Positions 1,744 through 8,621 of a stretch of 24,234 nucleotides of DNA are shown here, piece after piece. A program made the translations under genes and the position numbers. Numbering within the stretch: position 1 is the first letter of the stretch; the number at the start of each line of letters is the position of its first letter. The notes below the pieces were generated by a model that saw nothing but the letters and a program-made list of their open reading frames with translations, was not told where the DNA came from and did no database searches. The stretch comes from a virus. Where the stretch lies: positions 1 to 24,234 of IMG/VR virus record IMGVR_UViG_3300008262_006466. One strand, 5' to 3'.

Positions 1744-2571
1744 TCAACATTTTTGTGAATGGCCACCACCAGAAGCAATTCTTTGAACAAACTTGGAAAC
1801 GTCTATTGTAGAATTGTTTGAATTTCTTCTGACAGCAATTCTTTTTTGTTCAATTAAAACAGCAATTGCTACGTCAACTTTAAATTTGTTAAGCAAATGA
1901 TCGCAACATTCTTGAACAAATTTATTGCAAAAAACAGCACCAACTTTAATATTTTTCTGGCCGTCAAACTCTATTTCTCCAACAAAAGGACTCAATGTAT
2001 CAATATATTCTTTTCGGTGTTTCTTATAAAGCAATATTGTATTTTCTTTAAATTTGTCAAATGGTTTAAATCCTTCCCAATAATCTTCAACAAAAGAATT
2101 AAACTTGTCAGACATTGAATGATACACAATATTTAAGCTTTCTGAAAGTGGAGTTGCTTTCGTATTTGAGTCCCAATCGTCAGCTAAAGCAATTAGTGTT
2201 TTTTGAGATCCCGTTAAAGGTTTATTAGTGGCTTTAAAAAATGTATCGTAAATTAATTTTGCGCAGCTTGTTTCATTATAGATTCTTACAACTGCGTTTT
2301 TAAACGGATACAAATTTGTTTTGTGATGATCAAGTACAACGGTGTTTTTTAAATCGATTTGCTCTCCAATTTTGGAAACATCAAGATCTAAAAAATATAA
2401 CTTATCCCATTGCTTTCCGGAAGAAATGAGCTTGTTGTAATCTTGTTCAAGCTTCATCGGAGTAGTTCCAACTACATCTAGCTTTCTTCCATATATCCAA
2501 CAAAGAACTAGATAGCTCACAACGCCATCAAGATCCGTGTGGACAACTACCTGAATTTTCTTCTCTTCCAT
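1744..2571 (-). CDS. DHH-family phosphoesterase
   Basis: A 275-residue protein with the complete DHH/DHHA1 signature. It has HTDLDG (residues 11-16) and LDLD (61-64) for metal binding, the family triad DHH (81-83) in VVLDHHKTN, an Asp pair in ALADDWDSN (131-132), and a C-terminal GGGH motif (268-271) typical of the substrate-binding DHHA1 domain. Members of this superfamily include RecJ-type exonucleases and NrnA-type enzymes that cleave nanoRNA or pAp. The short two-domain form, without a RecJ-sized core, favours the NrnA/nanoRNase-like group, so RNA-primer or short-oligonucleotide turnover is plausible. The start is ATG 2571, preceded by a visible Shine-Dalgarno AAGG 9 bases upstream, unlike most genes here. 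It lies just downstream of a terminator-like hairpin, so it probably begins a new transcript. Confidence 0.85.
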   Translation of the reverse strand: MEEKKIQVVVHTDLDGVVSYLVLCWIYGRKLDVVGTTPMKLEQDYNKLISSGKQWDKLYFLDLDVSKIGEQIDLKNTVVLDHHKTNLYPFKNAVVRIYNETSCAKLIYDTFFKATNKPLTGSQKTLIALADDWDSNTKATPLSESLNIVYHSMSDKFNSFVEDYWEGFKPFDKFKENTILLYKKHRKEYIDTLSPFVGEIEFDGQKNIKVGAVFCNKFVQECCDHLLNKFKVDVAIAVLIEQKRIAVRRNSNNSTIDVSKFVQRIASGGGHSQKC

Positions 2572-2708: not shown

Positions 2709-3329
2709 ATGAAAACAAACTCAAATAAACAAAGTTATTGGCAAAAAAACAAAGAAAAAATTGTAAAACAAAGAAAAGAAAAATACAACAACGATCCAGA
2801 ATATAGGAAAAAAGTACTATCTTGGAACAAACAAGGAGTAGATAAAAATCCCGAAATGCGAAAGCGGTGGGCAAAAAATTCTTACCTTAAAAATAAAGAA
2901 AAAATTTCAAAACAACACAAAGAGTACTATCAATCTAATAAAGAAGCAGCTAAATTGTATGCAGCTGAGTGGTATCAAAAAAATAAAGATTTGAGAAACA
3001 AACAAGAATATGAGCGATACTACAACAATCCTCTTAATAAAATATCTCGAGCTTTGAGATCAGTAGTAAGAAATGCATTCAAAAGAATTGGAAAGAATAA
3101 ACCTGCCAATACGGAAAAACTGATGGGGTGTTCATGGATTGAAGCAAAAAAACATTTTGAAACTTTATTTACTGAAGGAATGTGTTGGGAAAATTATGGC
3201 AAATGGCACATAGATCATGTCCGTCCTTGTTCCTCTTTCACTGAAGAAGATATGCATTTAATGAATCAAATCTCAAACCTCCAACCTTTGTGGGCCGAAG
3301 ATAATCTTAAAAAGAGCGACAAATACTAG
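2709..3329 (+). CDS. HNH homing endonuclease
   Basis: A 206-residue protein and the only plus-strand gene in the window. The N-terminal half (about residues 10-105) is strongly basic and made of three loosely repeated helical units (YWQKNKEKI..., YLKNKEKI..., WYQKNKDLR...), probably for DNA binding. The C-terminal HNH nuclease core has WHIDH (166-170, with D169 and H170), then N190 in SNLQPLW and the ending EDNLKKSDKY, a common phage-type HNH pattern. It is convergent with the C-terminal helicase gene and their stop codons overlap by 4 bases inside ACTAGT. Free-standing HNH genes of this type are mobile and cut cognate alleles of a nearby gene; the neighbouring gp41 gene is the obvious candidate target. 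No Shine-Dalgarno is evident. Confidence 0.9.
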   Translation: MKTNSNKQSYWQKNKEKIVKQRKEKYNNDPEYRKKVLSWNKQGVDKNPEMRKRWAKNSYLKNKEKISKQHKEYYQSNKEAAKLYAAEWYQKNKDLRNKQEYERYYNNPLNKISRALRSVVRNAFKRIGKNKPANTEKLMGCSWIEAKKHFETLFTEGMCWENYGKWHIDHVRPCSSFTEEDMHLMNQISNLQPLWAEDNLKKSDKY

Positions 3330-3853
3330 TCATCGATCAACTTATTTAGAGTGTTGTCAGCGTTTTGTACATTGTCTTCTGTAGAATTTCCATCAGCTGC
3401 AAAATAATCTGAATTTGTTTCTTTTAAGGTTAGTGTGTTATAATTGCATTTGAAAGCAGCTGATCCAAAGTTAGGACCAAAACGATTCTTTTGCATTCCC
3501 ATATTAATAATTCCAAGCTCCCTGTCCTCTTCTTCTTGCCACAAAGAACAGATCACATCACACGTTGCAGCTAAACCAATTGAGTTTTTCGTTAAAATTC
3601 CATTGCAGTAAAAAAGACTATCTCCAGTTACTGATATATCGATTGTTTCTCTTTCCCCTAAAAACTCTATTTCCACTATCTCATCATTATAATCTAATAA
3701 ACTATCACTAAGTTTTGTTTTCTCTTCCTGCTCTTCAAACATCTTAGTAACAACTTCCATGTATTTTTCGTTGGAAGTCTTGCTGTCTGTCATTCCCATG
3801 AGCTTCATAAACTCAATCCGTTTCGAAATGAAATTTAATATATTTTGATTCAT
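3326..3853 (-). CDS. 41: Gp41 replicative helicase, C-terminal piece: C-intein plus C-extein
   Basis: A 175-residue protein. Residues 1-53 are a charged extension. Residues about 54-90 form a C-intein with DEIVEIEFLGERETIDISV and LFYCNGILTKN, ending at N90 (codon 3584-3586). S91 is the +1 nucleophile. Residues 91-175 are the C-extein, starting SIGLAATCDVICSLW, which matches the T4 gp41 segment SFGLPATADF, and continuing with MGMQKNRFGPNFG. The penultimate intein residue is Lys instead of the usual His. After trans-splicing with the upstream N-terminal piece the product would be about 452 residues (T4 gp41 is 475). Its ATG overlaps the stop of the endonuclease gene by 4 bases, suggesting translational coupling. 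Alone this protein has no ATPase site. Confidence 0.9.
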   Translation of the reverse strand: MNQNILNFISKRIEFMKLMGMTDSKTSNEKYMEVVTKMFEEQEEKTKLSDSLLDYNDEIVEIEFLGERETIDISVTGDSLFYCNGILTKNSIGLAATCDVICSLWQEEEDRELGIINMGMQKNRFGPNFGSAAFKCNYNTLTLKETNSDYFAADGNSTEDNVQNADNTLNKLIDD

Positions 3854-4956
3854 TTTAAAATTAATTCCTTTAAAGTTTGAATATCAGGCAAATTATCCGA
3901 CCATACATAGACAATGTCAAATCCTAATTTGGAAGCAACTCTTTTTTTATTGAGATCTCGTTCATAAGACTCCTCGTAAGTTACCATGGGATTTTTCCAT
4001 TCGTTTTTGTCCCGAGCGTGCCAAAACACATCATTGTATTCAATTATTAGTTTTTTTGTTTTGATTACAAAATCAAAAGCATAATTTTTATTAGTTTCTT
4101 TGTCGAATGTTGTAAATTCTCGTCGTTTGCCAATCCCCCAAATGATATCCTCCTTAAGAATTCCGCATTTTCTTAAAGCTTTATACAATGGTTTAAAATA
4201 TCTAATAGAAGTTTTGGATACGTAACCGTTCAACATCAAAGAGCCGTATTTGTCCATTTTTGTTTTTCTTTGTTTTTCGTAAGTGTTTCTATACATTTCT
4301 TTGCCAACTTCTTCTCCATGTCTTTCAATAAAACTTTGCAATGTATGAGAAGGAGGTATATATTTTTTAATTTGAATTATTGCTTGTTCTTTCGTATATC
4401 CTTGTTGTACCCAATACTCTATGTTTTTTCTTTCTTTCTTAGTTTTAGAAACTTGTTCGTATTTTTTTCTTTTTTTGTCGGGATTTTCCGTTAAGGTTTT
4501 AATGGACGCTGCAGTGCCTTTTTTATTCAGATCTGCATAATGCTCCCGCTTTTGTTTAAGAGCTTCTTCTAAGGAAAACCCTTTGTTTAGCCAAAACTCA
4601 ATACGTCCAAACGAAATTTTATTTACTGCTTTGGCTTTTAAATTGTTTGTATATTTTAGTCCCGAACCTTCTCCGTGTCTTATGTCTAATTGTCTAGTTA
4701 TTGGAGTATGCTTGTTGTGATATTCTTGAATTAATAATTTAAGGCTCTGTTCTGAAGTAGACGAATTTGTATTCATAATTTGCAAAATTATTTTAAGTCT
4801 GTTTTGAAATTTAGATTGAGTTAAAGGATACAAACTAAATTCTGAACAATACCATTTAAATATGTTTTTTAGATAGGTTAACTTTTTGCCCCATCTTTGG
4901 AAAAAAAGTTCAAAATCCTGTTCATTAGTACACTTACAGTAGTTTCTTTTTTGCAT
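3850..4956 (-). CDS. Vsr-like (EDxHD family) homing endonuclease inside the fractured helicase gene
   Basis: A 368-residue protein. The C-terminal nuclease core resembles Vsr mismatch endonucleases and the related phage homing endonucleases: YAFDF (D295), LIIEYNDVFWHAR (E306, H313), YERD (332-334, with D334) and VYVWSD (349-354). The middle holds two copies of a helical DNA-binding-like unit, EFWLNKGFSLEEAL (about 120-133) and EYWVQQGYTKEQAI (about 180-193). ATG 4956 makes it overlap the N-terminal helicase gene by 79 bases, and its stop overlaps the C-terminal helicase start. It therefore fills the break in gp41 exactly. Split-intein genes separated by endonucleases of this family have been described from marine metagenomes as 'fractured genes'. 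Its likely role is homing into unbroken gp41 alleles. Confidence 0.88.
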   Translation of the reverse strand: MQKRNYCKCTNEQDFELFFQRWGKKLTYLKNIFKWYCSEFSLYPLTQSKFQNRLKIILQIMNTNSSTSEQSLKLLIQEYHNKHTPITRQLDIRHGEGSGLKYTNNLKAKAVNKISFGRIEFWLNKGFSLEEALKQKREHYADLNKKGTAASIKTLTENPDKKRKKYEQVSKTKKERKNIEYWVQQGYTKEQAIIQIKKYIPPSHTLQSFIERHGEEVGKEMYRNTYEKQRKTKMDKYGSLMLNGYVSKTSIRYFKPLYKALRKCGILKEDIIWGIGKRREFTTFDKETNKNYAFDFVIKTKKLIIEYNDVFWHARDKNEWKNPMVTYEESYERDLNKKRVASKLGFDIVYVWSDNLPDIQTLKELILK

Positions 4957-6323
4957 ACTATACTATTTAATCTATCCCCCACTCGAATTCCATCGACTAT
5001 AGACATTCTTCCACGTTTTGTTGGAAACTTATGTTTGTCACTAACAATAATCTCCTTTCCGGATTTAAGTTTAATTCTATAGCAAGGTTTAGTTTTCTTG
5101 TGATGAACTTGAGTAACGGTTTTAAACCCGTCATTGGACGTTACTTGATCTCCAAATTCTACATCTCCAATTTTTTTTGTTGTTCCGTCTCTCAAGGTAA
5201 TCATCTGGTTTACTTCAATACATTCAGAGATTCCTTCCATTCCAGGAGATGCTGTATTAAAGCTACCTCTGTTCAACTGAGTTGCTGATACAATTGGTAT
5301 GTTGTACTTAAATGACAGAGCTCTAAGATGTTCTGCAATCTCTTTAACTGATTCGTAAGAGTTAAGATTTTTAGCAATAGGGTGAATCAAATTAATATAA
5401 TCTACGACCACTATATCCGGTTCAAATCCTTTATGTTTGAGTTTTGTCATAAACCCGTCAATTTGTCTTACCGTAATAGTTTTTGGTGGATATTCTTTAA
5501 TAACAAGTTTGCTGTTAAGATTCTTTTTAATATGCAGTACTTGTTCTTTTAATTCTTCTGTAAATGTTTTAAGATCTCCATGAGGAATTTGAGTTAATTG
5601 TGTGCTAATTCGCTTGGAGTACATAAACTCCGACATTTCTAGGGAAATAAGCAAAACGTTTTTATCAGCAAGAAGCATGTTTGTTGTTATGTTGCCGAGC
5701 ACGATGGATTTACCTACGTTTACTTGTCCAGCAAATACCGTAAGAGTTTTAGGAAATAAGCCTCCTTCGGTCTTCTTGTCAAAGAAGTCCCAACCAGTAG
5801 GAATCGGATTGTATACTGCGGTTAGATCTTTGATGTGTTTATCAACATCTTCAAAATACCAATGACCTAAATTTTCTCTTAATGTAATGTTGTAAGCCTT
5901 TTCAAAGTCTACGAGCGTTTCTTCGATTGAAAAAGATTGATCAGAAAATTTCTCAGCAACATTTAGAATTGTCTTATAAATGAATCGTTCTTTGAGAAAC
6001 TTTTCTGTATTAGAAACTAATTCATCTTTATTAAACTGACCTTCGATACTGCTAAGTTTCGGCTTAATTTCAGCAAGAGCTTTTTTGTCTTCTTCTGTTG
6101 TAAGACGAGCTTTAATTTCTGGAAGAGTCGGTACAGTTCCTCTTTCATTAAAGAACGAAACTATCTTAGAAACTACCTTTCCTATATTTTTATCATTAAA
6201 GAATGACGAATCAATATAAGAAATTATAGAACTTAGATATTCTGGATTAGTAAATGAATTGTAAAGCAGTATCGATTCAAAATAGTCTAAATCTAGCTTG
6301 GTTTGAGGTTGAACTTTACTCAT
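4878..6323 (-). CDS. 41: Gp41 replicative helicase, N-terminal piece: N-extein plus N-intein
   Basis: A 481-residue protein. Residues 1-367 are a DnaB/gp41-type hexameric helicase: N-terminal helical domain, Walker A GQVNVGKS (199-206), ISLEM (226-230), Walker B VVVDY (305-309) and the SATQLNRG motif (346-353). It runs up to PGMEGISE (360-367), equivalent to T4 PGMEDTSE. An N-intein starts at C368 (codon 5220-5222): block A CIEVNQMITLRDGTTKKIGD, then a block-B-like LKSGKEIIVSDKHKF and VGDRLNS, ending near residue 459. About 22 further residues follow before the stop. The protein lacks the last part of the RecA-like fold, so activity should need splicing to the partner. It overlaps the upstream endonuclease gene by 8 bases. 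Gp41 unwinds the lagging-strand template at the fork. Confidence 0.92.
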   Translation of the reverse strand: MSKVQPQTKLDLDYFESILLYNSFTNPEYLSSIISYIDSSFFNDKNIGKVVSKIVSFFNERGTVPTLPEIKARLTTEEDKKALAEIKPKLSSIEGQFNKDELVSNTEKFLKERFIYKTILNVAEKFSDQSFSIEETLVDFEKAYNITLRENLGHWYFEDVDKHIKDLTAVYNPIPTGWDFFDKKTEGGLFPKTLTVFAGQVNVGKSIVLGNITTNMLLADKNVLLISLEMSEFMYSKRISTQLTQIPHGDLKTFTEELKEQVLHIKKNLNSKLVIKEYPPKTITVRQIDGFMTKLKHKGFEPDIVVVDYINLIHPIAKNLNSYESVKEIAEHLRALSFKYNIPIVSATQLNRGSFNTASPGMEGISECIEVNQMITLRDGTTKKIGDVEFGDQVTSNDGFKTVTQVHHKKTKPCYRIKLKSGKEIIVSDKHKFPTKRGRMSIVDGIRVGDRLNSIVCKKETTVSVLMNRILNFFSKDGAKS

Positions 6324-7392
6324 TTAAGAAATGGGTGTTTTGTATTTTGGAAATTTGTTTAATAACATTTTGTATTGTTTCAAATTTATTGCGTTTGTAA
6401 TCGTCTTCCCAAACTATTATACAGGGCAGTTTAGTTTCTTCCACAAGAAAGGCTATTTTTTTATGATCTCTTTCCCAAATCTTTGAAGCTAAAATGTGAT
6501 GTTTTGAATTATTGCCTCTTTTAAGCACACTATGCGGCTTGTATTTTCTAGGATCAGCATGCCAAAAAGTTCCAAAAAACTCAATAATGCAAACGTTCGG
6601 AATTAAAAAATCTACAATATAATTTCCTATTAGTTCTTCTGTACATATAGCATATTTTAAATGCGAAACCAAGTTAGTGTAAAAGTCTATTGATATTTTA
6701 CTTTGTTTGTTTTTATTGTTTTTACCAAACAAAGTATTAACGCCTGTTTTAGTGTATCCAGCCAGTCTTTTAATTTCAATTTCTTTCCGTCGTTCTTCTG
6801 TTCTGCTTAAAATTGTATTTTTTCGCTTTTCTGCATGCTTTTTTACGCATTCTGGATTTTTCATGTTGTGAGTAAATCCATTTTTTTTATAATATGTTTG
6901 TTGGCCCTTCAGTTGAGCAATTTGCTTGTAGTTAGCTCCATATTTAAGTTGCTTGACTCTATGAGAATGTTCGTAGAACCCTGGTCTCATAAAACTGTAT
7001 TCGTAACCATGTTTTTCAAGACAAGTTTGTTTAGCTTTGTCTTTAGTTTCTCTGCCATTCTTTCGATTAGAACAGGCTTTGCATCTTATTGCAAATTTTT
7101 CGGAGTGTTTTAAGGTTGTTTGATTGCAAACAGAAAATGTAAACAAAGAGCTGAGTTTGACATCTTTTAATATTTGTTTGTCACAATCGACACAAAAAAC
7201 ATTTAAAATAAATTTATTGTTACGAGTTAAATTTATTTCTTGCACTTCTCCATGAAGAGTAGCAAACCACTTATAATAAGTTCCATTTTTACCTTTACAT
7301 TCTTTTACAAGAACATCTGTAAGTTTTTCGGGATCAAAATTTGATGTGTATTTTATACTAGACTGTTTTAATAAGTTGGATATTGCATTCAC
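6316..7392 (-). CDS. Free-standing Vsr-like homing endonuclease
   Basis: A 358-residue protein inserted between uvsX and gp41. The start is GTG 7392, eight bases after the uvsX stop; I found no better in-frame ATG. The N-terminal part has a probable zinc ribbon (C67/C70 and C104/C107). Residues about 122-195 carry three degenerate units of the type CLEKHGY...MRPGFYEHS, LKYGANYKQ and KKNGFTHNMKNPE, a DNA-binding repeat seen in phage and giant-virus endonucleases. The C-terminal nuclease core has NYIVDF (D261), IIEFFGTFWHAD (E271, H278, D280), IWERDH (305-310) and IIVWEDD. The core matches that of the endonuclease at 3850-4956, but the N-terminal DNA-binding parts differ, so the two probably recognise different sites. 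A homing role is inferred from family and position. Confidence 0.85.
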   Translation of the reverse strand: MNAISNLLKQSSIKYTSNFDPEKLTDVLVKECKGKNGTYYKWFATLHGEVQEINLTRNNKFILNVFCVDCDKQILKDVKLSSLFTFSVCNQTTLKHSEKFAIRCKACSNRKNGRETKDKAKQTCLEKHGYEYSFMRPGFYEHSHRVKQLKYGANYKQIAQLKGQQTYYKKNGFTHNMKNPECVKKHAEKRKNTILSRTEERRKEIEIKRLAGYTKTGVNTLFGKNNKNKQSKISIDFYTNLVSHLKYAICTEELIGNYIVDFLIPNVCIIEFFGTFWHADPRKYKPHSVLKRGNNSKHHILASKIWERDHKKIAFLVEETKLPCIIVWEDDYKRNKFETIQNVIKQISKIQNTHFLNE

Positions 7393-7400
7393 TCATTTAT

Positions 7401-8555
7401 TTATTCTGTTGGCTCTTGTTTTTCACTTTCGCTCTCTTCTTCTACTTCAGGTGACTCATTTTTAAAACAGAGCTCGGTCTGAAGTTTCTTTTCCAATTCA
7501 GGAAGAATTCTATTCCACACCTCCTCATCTTCCTTCCAATCTTTATAAAATCCCAAAGACTCTCCTTTGAATGCGAATTGATGACCTCGTCTTTCAATAA
7601 CTCCATAACCTTCAGCCATTTCAAGAAGACCGGAAAATTTATTTAAACCTGTACGAAAATTTAAATACATTTCGATTTCCAAAAACGGAGTAACAAATCG
7701 GTTCTTTGTAGTTAAAGCTCTCAGCGTAACTCCATTAATTCCTTTCGAAATTAGCGTAGTTTCCGTATTTGCATCTTTGTTTTTGGAATCTTCTGCTCTC
7801 TCGGTTTTTTTTGCCATCTGAACAATTACGGATGACATATACAATGGTCCGGAACCTCCGGCTTGTTTTTTAATTGCTGTAGGATGAAGTTGAGAAGGGT
7901 CCTCATAAATATGATTAGTAAATACAACGGGGCAGTTTGCTTTGGCTGCTGCATGTGTAACAGCTCGCATCAAACTTTTTAGTTGCTTGCTTCTATTTCC
8001 CATATCTAAGCTTTCTGACCCTTCTTCAATTTTCTTTTTTTCTTGTGCAGTAATTAAATTTCCAAGGGAATCAATAACAATTAAAACCTTTCCTTGCAAA
8101 TTATTTGCTACAACGGAATCCAAAAATTGGACAATCTCGTTTCGACACTGTTCCGTAATTTCTGAAGGAACATGTTTAATTTTTGAGGTATTGCATCCTA
8201 ATCTTTGAGCAGTAGCTTCATCCAAGGCTCCTTCTGTATCAAAATAAGCAACATACATGCCTTTCTTTTGAGCATTAGCCATGATTTTATTAGCCATCAA
8301 AGTTTTTCCACAACTTTCCGCTCCAATAAATGCTGTTAGTCGACCCATCGGAACTCCTCCATATAAAGACCCAGAAATAATTGCATTCAAAGCATAAGAG
8401 CCGGTATCAATCCATTCTGTCACTGTTGATAGACTGTTTCCATTTAAAAATGCTGCATTTGAATTTAATTTATCTAATACTTTAAAGGCATCTTGAATTG
8501 AACCTGAAGTTGAATTCTCTACTTCTTCCATTGATAGTTTTTTTGTTTTAGACAT
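7401..8555 (-). CDS. uvsX: UvsX recombinase (RecA-like)
   Basis: A 384-residue protein (T4 UvsX is 391) from ATG 8555, MSKTKKLSMEEV. A longer frame from TTG 8594 is rejected because it would begin inside the T-tract of a terminator. Residues 50-80 lead into Walker A GAESCGKT (78-85), then YFDTEGALDE with the catalytic Glu region (104-113), Walker B VLIVIDS (157-163), a conserved NHIYEDP (214-220) and the DNA-binding-loop region with QAGGSG (231-236). The C-terminus is strongly acidic, as in RecA proteins. UvsX forms filaments on ssDNA and drives strand invasion for recombination-dependent replication. It follows a terminator and a candidate promoter, so it probably heads the transcript that continues through the endonuclease into gp41, the T4 order uvsX-40-41. 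Confidence 0.93.
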   Translation of the reverse strand: MSKTKKLSMEEVENSTSGSIQDAFKVLDKLNSNAAFLNGNSLSTVTEWIDTGSYALNAIISGSLYGGVPMGRLTAFIGAESCGKTLMANKIMANAQKKGMYVAYFDTEGALDEATAQRLGCNTSKIKHVPSEITEQCRNEIVQFLDSVVANNLQGKVLIVIDSLGNLITAQEKKKIEEGSESLDMGNRSKQLKSLMRAVTHAAAKANCPVVFTNHIYEDPSQLHPTAIKKQAGGSGPLYMSSVIVQMAKKTERAEDSKNKDANTETTLISKGINGVTLRALTTKNRFVTPFLEIEMYLNFRTGLNKFSGLLEMAEGYGVIERRGHQFAFKGESLGFYKDWKEDEEVWNRILPELEKKLQTELCFKNESPEVEEESESEKQEPTE

Positions 8556-8563
8556 ACTTTTAA

Positions 8564-8591
8564 AGTATCTCTCAGAAATATTCTTTTTCAA
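8564..8591 (-). promoter_or_regulatory. Candidate promoter for uvsX
   Basis: TTGAAA (8586-8591), a 16-nt spacer and GATACT (8564-8569) lie on the minus strand, 8 nt before the uvsX ATG and immediately after a terminator. If used, transcription would start within a base or two of the start codon. Confidence 0.4.
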
Positions 8592-8592
8592 C

Positions 8593-8621
8593 AAAAAGAA
8601 AAGACCTCCGAAGAGGTCTTT
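8593..8621 (-). terminator. Rho-independent terminator with UUCG tetraloop
   Basis: On the minus strand a perfect 9-bp stem (arms 8600-8608 and 8613-8621) encloses the tetraloop TTCG closed by C-G, the extra-stable loop common in T4 terminators. It is followed by TCTTTTTG. It lies 26 bases after the stop of the small acidic-tailed gene and before uvsX, so it ends the transcript coming from gp43. Confidence 0.9.

What the first reader, a model, noticed from the sequence alone, without database searches (positions are those of the whole stretch)
3326..6323. Replicative helicase encoded as a fractured gene: split intein with an endonuclease gene in the break
The gp41 coding sequence stops inside an intein (N-intein from C368 of the first gene) and resumes in another gene (C-intein ending N90, +1 Ser91). 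A 1.1-kb Vsr-like endonuclease gene lies between, overlapping both pieces. The exteins together rebuild a gp41 of normal length, and the split sits inside the conserved T4 sequence DTSE/SFGLPAT. Fractured genes of this kind are known from marine metagenomes (gp41, NrdA, IMPDH and others). As I recall, the characterised gp41-1 and gp41-8 split sites lie closer to the QLNR motif, about 14 residues upstream of this site, so this may be a less studied insertion site. Block B and the C-intein resemble gp41-8 from memory.
Basis: partly seen in the sequence, partly recalled or inferred. Interest (0 to 1): 0.9.

Follow-up and report, generated by a model that had tools for sequence, protein, structure and literature searches.

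The report
Phage helicase gene split by intein
A phage's essential DNA helicase is encoded as two separate genes with a DNA-cutting selfish gene between them, and the two protein pieces are predicted to splice themselves into one; this arrangement was already known, but a cultured T4-like phage and near-identical viruses with and without the cutting gene now make it testable.

Summary
On the minus strand a T4 gp41-type helicase is encoded as an N-half (4878-6323), a 368-aa Vsr/EDxHD-type endonuclease gene (3850-4956) and a C-half (3326-3853). The halves carry an N-intein from Cys368 and a C-intein ending Asn90, followed by Ser91. All 47 unbroken relatives read straight through the site. Independent viral contigs share the locus. 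A cultured, completely sequenced T4-like phage, Shigella phage ESh36, has the same break and no other gp41. So this is a fractured gene joined by protein trans-splicing, a kind described in 2009; splicing itself is inferred. What I add: (1) this E/S site is distinct from the QLNR site 14-15 residues upstream (L073 has both filled); (2) all 26 E/S-site inteins have Lys, not His, before the last Asn, and the split ones carry a helical N-terminal extension on the C-intein; (3) the endonuclease is dispensable: present or deleted in near-identical pairs, a relic in L006; (4) inteins are far more alike than their helicases across two lineages, pointing to horizontal spread. Whether the 2009 paper already covers this site could not be checked.

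The parts
4878..6323 (-). N-half gene: N-extein of gp41 helicase + N-intein (481 aa)
5223..6323 (-). N-extein, helicase residues 1-367, with Walker A GQVNVGKS
   Evidence: phrog_19 3.7e-64; T4 gp41 8dtp
4968..5222 (-). N-intein core, from Cys368 (CIEVNQ...) through block B-like VSDKHKF
   Evidence: TIGR01445 from residue 368; PF14890; 6qaz; A4
4881..4967 (-). C-terminal tail of N-half (29 aa), mostly overlapping the start of the endonuclease gene
3850..4956 (-). Free-standing homing endonuclease gene, Vsr/EDxHD-like C-terminal nuclease domain
   Evidence: phrog_22677; Foldseek top hits 1cw0, 1vsr, 3r3p; dN/dS about 0.09-0.13
3326..3853 (-). C-half gene: C-intein + C-extein (175 aa)
3695..3853 (-). 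N-terminal extension of the C-intein, predicted helix-loop-helix (residues 1-53)
   Evidence: AlphaFold helices 3-18 and 28-47, pLDDT 81-88; A7
3584..3694 (-). C-intein core ending ...GILTKN90, penultimate Lys
   Evidence: 6qaz match
3329..3583 (-). C-extein from Ser91 (SIGLAATCD...), helicase C-terminus
   Evidence: phrog_19 from profile position 522; structural match to 8dtp
3866..3871 (-). Shine-Dalgarno-like AAAGGA before the C-half ATG, inside the end of the endonuclease gene
   Evidence: read from sequence; inference

Best explanation
This is a fractured gp41 helicase gene. The N-half and C-half proteins are made separately; their intein halves associate, fold as one Hint-type intein, and trans-splice, joining E367 of the N-half to S91 of the C-half and releasing the intein, which rebuilds a 452-aa gp41. 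The gene between the halves encodes a Vsr/EDxHD homing endonuclease that probably cuts unbroken gp41 alleles near the E/S site in co-infected cells, so that repair copies the whole split-intein cassette into them. Shown here: the gene anatomy, the empty sites, the conserved intein residues, purifying selection where measurable, spread between helicase lineages, and endonuclease loss without loss of the halves. Inferred: the splicing reaction, the cutting and the homing. The helical extension of the C-intein and the conserved penultimate Lys are properties of this insertion-site class; I infer that the extension helps the fragments assemble and that Lys replaces His in Asn cyclisation.
For: Anatomy and homology. 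47 unbroken relatives with continuous junction. Same locus with endonuclease in independent contigs L003, L004, L005, L071, L075. Inteins at the same site in diverged helicases (26 distinct C-inteins at E/S). ESh36, a cultured T4-like phage with complete genome: same break, 1,553-bp insert at GCAGAA^TCTGCCGGT relative to Phaginator, no other gp41 match in 170,646 bases. No second gp41 in 7 other records. Endonuclease dispensable: L006 has only fragments of it, L060 none, L092/L093 (96.5-97.9% identical) and L123/L122 (99.9%) differ by its presence, halves open in all. N-intein dN/dS 0.04-0.12 where dS is not saturated. Helicase identity between two lineages median 31% but N-intein 54%. Nuclease domain fold matches Vsr and I-Bth0305I.
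Against: No splicing or cleavage data. The C-intein lacks the usual penultimate His, and the block F His is also missing (Ser), so canonical Asn cyclisation cannot be assumed. The window is a 24-kb fragment, so a second gp41 elsewhere in this virus is not excluded. The ESh36 record is marked UNVERIFIED. Endonuclease Foldseek E-values are weak (5.6e-3 to 2.2e-2) because the model is poor outside the C-terminal domain (mean pLDDT 59).
Confidence: 0.92

Rival explanations
1. Genes in pieces without splicing: the two halves act as a non-covalent two-subunit helicase and the intein remnants are inert linkers, as reported for a phage ribonucleotide reductase split by a homing endonuclease.
For: A precedent for a gene split into two working peptides by a homing endonuclease is cited in PMC10448857. 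Penultimate His is absent.
Against: Cys1, block B His, terminal Asn and +1 Ser are invariant across the class; N-intein dN/dS 0.04-0.12; intein parts are kept after the endonuclease is lost. Inert remnants should decay.
Confidence: 0.05
2. Broken pseudogene or assembly error.
For: The virus is a metagenomic fragment.
Against: Same architecture in independent contigs and in a cultured phage; no intact copy in eight records including a complete genome; purifying selection.
Confidence: 0.01
3. A group I intron or programmed frameshifting joins the pieces at RNA or translation level.
For: Phage endonucleases often sit in group I introns.
Against: No Rfam match anywhere in the window; the reading frame continues into intein motifs on both sides; in L060 the halves are adjacent with no room for an intron.
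Confidence: 0.01
4. On the extension only: the N-terminal extension of the C-intein is a relic (for example of a lost domain) rather than a working part.
For: Fast-evolving (dN about 0.4 between the window and L006 or L060); only Asp50 is invariant in 21 sequences; absent in the contiguous intein L147.
Against: Kept as an open helix-loop-helix in all split E/S members with their start in the contig, with and without endonuclease; dN/dS 0.055 (window-L005) and 0.146 (L060-L071) where measurable.
Confidence: 0.3

Closest known systems
Fractured genes of Dassa et al. 2009 (doi 10.1093/nar/gkp095; not held, content recalled; cited in PMC7090010, PMC6892783, PMC12350094)
   Same: Replication gene broken by a split intein with a free-standing, often Vsr-like endonuclease gene in the break; gp41 among the hosts.
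   Different: Insertion site E/S, penultimate Lys and C-intein extension could not be compared with their 26 loci.
gp41-1 split intein (PDB 6qaz, 6riz)
   Same: N-intein and C-intein both match it by sequence; same host helicase family.
   Different: gp41-1 has His before the final Asn (LTHN); its site, as recalled TRSGY/SSSDV, is upstream.
gp41-8 split intein (recalled junction SQLNR/SAVEE)
   Same: Same host gene.
   Different: Its site would be 14-15 residues upstream; inteins at that NR site here have His-Asn and mostly 4-28-aa leaders. Sequence not compared.
Pseudomonas phage MIJ3 PolB split intein with HNH endonuclease (PMC6892783)
   Same: Split intein with an endonuclease gene in the break in an isolated phage.
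   Different: Other host gene, HNH nuclease, penultimate His (VHN).
I-Bth0305I and Vsr endonuclease (PDB 3r3p, 1cw0, 1vsr)
   Same: Predicted fold of the C-terminal nuclease domain.
   Different: No significant sequence match; the N-terminal two thirds is unassigned.

Membership tests
Fractured gene with split intein | One conserved enzyme encoded in two ORFs, each carrying an intein half at the break | tested here: met
Fractured gene with split intein | Free-standing endonuclease gene between the halves | tested here: met
   ORF 3850-4956
Fractured gene with split intein | Exteins together equal the unbroken protein | tested here: met
   452 aa vs 452 aa in L062; 47/47 empty sites
Fractured gene with split intein | Protein trans-splicing occurs | not testable with these tools
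   needs an expression experiment
Class 1 intein | Nucleophile Cys or Ser at position 1 | tested here: met
   Cys368, invariant in A4
Class 1 intein | Block B His (TxxH) | tested here: met
   SDKH; His invariant, Thr replaced by Ser
Class 1 intein | Terminal Asn followed by Cys/Ser/Thr | tested here: met
   Asn90 then Ser91
Class 1 intein | Penultimate His (typical, not universal, as I recall) | tested here: not met
   Lys in 26 of 26 at this site
Vsr/EDxHD homing endonuclease | Vsr-like nuclease fold | tested here: met
   three best PDB hits are Vsr and I-Bth0305I, probability 1.00, E 0.006-0.02
Vsr/EDxHD homing endonuclease | E-D-H-D catalytic residues | tested here: inconclusive
   E280, D295, E306, H313 and D334 invariant in five relatives; roles not assigned
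Vsr/EDxHD homing endonuclease | Site-specific cleavage of the empty allele | not testable with these tools
   needs an enzyme assay
gp41-8 type (QLNR-site) intein | Insertion at QLNR/S | tested here: not met
   this intein is 14-15 residues downstream; L073 has both
T4 gp41 replicative helicase | Homology to gp41 and location beside uvsX | tested here: met
   uvsX at 7401-8594

The most novel reading that the evidence does not exclude
The E/S site of gp41 hosts a distinct, undescribed class of split inteins that splice with Lys in place of the penultimate His and use a helix-loop-helix extension on the C-intein for fragment assembly; the class has spread across distant T4-like phages and persists as a stable split gene after its endonuclease is lost.
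Probability: 0.4. Interest if true: 0.6.

Novelty: new member of a known kind. Interest (0 to 1): 0.48.

Why it matters
It supplies natural pairs of nearly identical phages with and without the endonuclease, and a cultured T4-like phage whose only replicative helicase is fractured. That makes two open questions testable: whether an essential phage gene really depends on trans-splicing in infection, and whether the free-standing endonuclease moves the whole split intein. The E/S-site class may also give trans-splicing tools with a different catalytic residue and a built-in assembly domain.

Tried and rejected
Group I intron or other structured RNA: no Rfam match. tRNA: none. T4 late promoter TATAAATA near the endonuclease: none in the locus, one chance match elsewhere. 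A promoter-like TTGACA-17-GATAAT at 3920-3892 upstream of the C-half is 11/12, but the scan as a whole is at chance level, so I do not use it. Bacterial genomes: no relative of the C-intein found in the collection of 84,980 species. The extension has no convincing PDB relative; Foldseek hits of the C-half model are to the helicase part. Intein and extein trees are too weakly supported for branch-level claims; I rely on the identity comparison. Synonymous divergence is lower in the N-intein next to the endonuclease than in the exteins for three relatives, which fits transfer but may also reflect sequence constraint. The fractured-gene paper could not be read, and papers on the characterised gp41, NrdJ and IMPDH inteins gave no list of insertion sites.

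Full report
What is there. On the minus strand, in order of transcription, lie a 481-aa ORF (4878-6323), a 368-aa ORF (3850-4956) and a 175-aa ORF (3326-3853). They overlap by 79 nt and 4 nt. The first encodes a DnaB/gp41-type helicase up to residue 367 (phrog_19, 3.7e-64; T4 gp41 8dtp, 4.9e-26) and then an N-intein: the NCBI intein N-terminal model aligns exactly from Cys368, and the gp41-1 intein structure 6qaz matches residues 382-452 (1.3e-12). The third encodes a C-intein ending Asn90 (6qaz) and then the rest of the helicase, which resumes in the phrog_19 profile at position 522, where the first ORF stopped. A structure model of the C-half matches T4 gp41.

The empty site. Close relatives without the break read straight through: 47 of 47 loci have the junction continuous in frame, with Glu (46) or Gln (1) before Ser. 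The exteins sum to 452 aa, as in unbroken L062. In T4 the site is E373/S374, DIAE/SAGLPATAD (8dtp chain numbering). In DnaB the homologous place is in DIKD/SGGIEQDAD; as I recall, the Ssp DnaB intein sits two residues further on (ESG/SIEQ).

The endonuclease. Sequence libraries give only weak hits (DUF559, phrog_22677). An AlphaFold model from five relatives is poor overall (mean pLDDT 59) but its C-terminal domain is better (about 70-82 in most blocks), and the three best PDB matches of the model are Vsr endonuclease twice and the I-Bth0305I catalytic domain, all with probability 1.00 though E is only 0.006-0.02. This supports the Vsr/EDxHD assignment. dN/dS is about 0.09-0.13.

Relatives. 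Searches of viral contigs found the same three-gene locus in L003, L004, L005, L071 and L075, and split inteins at the same site in many more diverged helicases. Counting distinct C-intein sequences, 26 sit at the E/S site; one of them, L147, is contiguous. Inteins at an upstream NR site (SxxR/C...HN/S) form the other main class. L073 has both sites filled, a contiguous intein at QLNR and a split one at E/S, so the two are separate insertion sites.

A cultured member. Shigella phage ESh36 (ON528746.1, Tequatrovirus) carries the same break, DIAE/CLDK...ILTKN/SAGLPATADF, with a different 332-aa ORF in it that shows weak similarity to the window's endonuclease. Against the unbroken phage Phaginator the insert is 1,553 bp at GCAGAA^TCTGCC. 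It is the only one of the 1,366 phage records matching its C-half protein in which one place covers at least 80% of that protein; the others listed match only from residue 106, the C-extein. A search of its complete 170,646-base record found no other gp41. As gene 41 is essential in T4 (established knowledge), a plaque-forming phage with only this copy implies that the halves make working helicase. The ESh36 genome paper does not mention inteins (PMC9686686). The record is marked UNVERIFIED.

The endonuclease is dispensable to the break. L006 keeps both halves open but has only two fragments of the endonuclease; L060 has the stop of one half and the start of the other one base apart. L092 and L093 (96.5-97.9% identical) differ by most of the endonuclease, whose last bases remain in L093; L123 and L122 (NR site) are 99.9% identical and differ by a whole endonuclease between 10-bp repeats.

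Features of the E/S class. All 26 C-inteins have Lys before the last Asn, against 1 of 26 at other sites, and 24 of 26 lack the block F His that 23 of 26 others have (these sequences are related, so the counts are not independent). Split members whose start lies in the contig carry about 45-75 residues before the C-intein core, predicted in the window as two helices (3-18, 28-47; pLDDT 81-88). At the NR site the leader is mostly 4-28 residues, with L145 (80) as an exception. The contiguous L147 has Lys but no extension.

Spread. Between the two helicase lineages median identity is 31% for the N-extein but 54% for the N-intein and 70% for the C-intein core; within lineages the N-extein medians are 56% and 54% against 68% and 55% for the N-intein. 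This indicates that the intein crossed between lineages. Window and L006 are closest by helicase (90%), yet window and L005 are closest by N-intein (92% against 81%), again fitting transfer.

Mechanism and status. Trans-splicing of an essential helicase, with an endonuclease as the mobility gene, is the best reading. Splicing, cutting and homing are inferred. The arrangement is a known kind; the E/S site with its Lys and extension may or may not be in the 2009 set, which I could not read.

Noticed in passing
L067 (ON528746.1 21500-27500): Cultured T4-like Shigella phage ESh36 has a fractured gp41 at the same site, unremarked in its genome paper.
   Followed up: yes
L090 2756-5829: gp41 appears to be in three pieces: an atypical split at the P-loop (about 15-aa N-intein, opposite-strand ORF in the break) plus the E/S split; no intact copy in the 41.8-kb record.
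   Followed up: partly
L122 1844-4404: gp41 also in three ORFs: break at GVGK/C..HN/T in the P-loop and at the NR site.
   Followed up: partly
L060 4259-5995: uvsX is split by a second intein (RAK/C...SHN/CKSMM) in the same virus as a fractured gp41.
   Followed up: partly
window 6316-7392 (-): A second, free-standing Vsr-like ORF between uvsX and gp41, absent there in L056.
   Followed up: partly
window 2709-3329 (+): HNH/endonuclease VII-like ORF convergent with the C-half, stop codons overlapping.
   Followed up: no
window 1744-2571 (-): DHH-family protein ends early after GGGH while relatives continue for about 20 residues; the DNA beyond still encodes part of the relatives' C-terminus in another frame, so a deletion or sequence error is likely.
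   Followed up: partly
L056 3-593 (-): Possible GIY-YIG-type endonuclease ORF upstream of uvsX in a relative, judged by eye.
   Followed up: no
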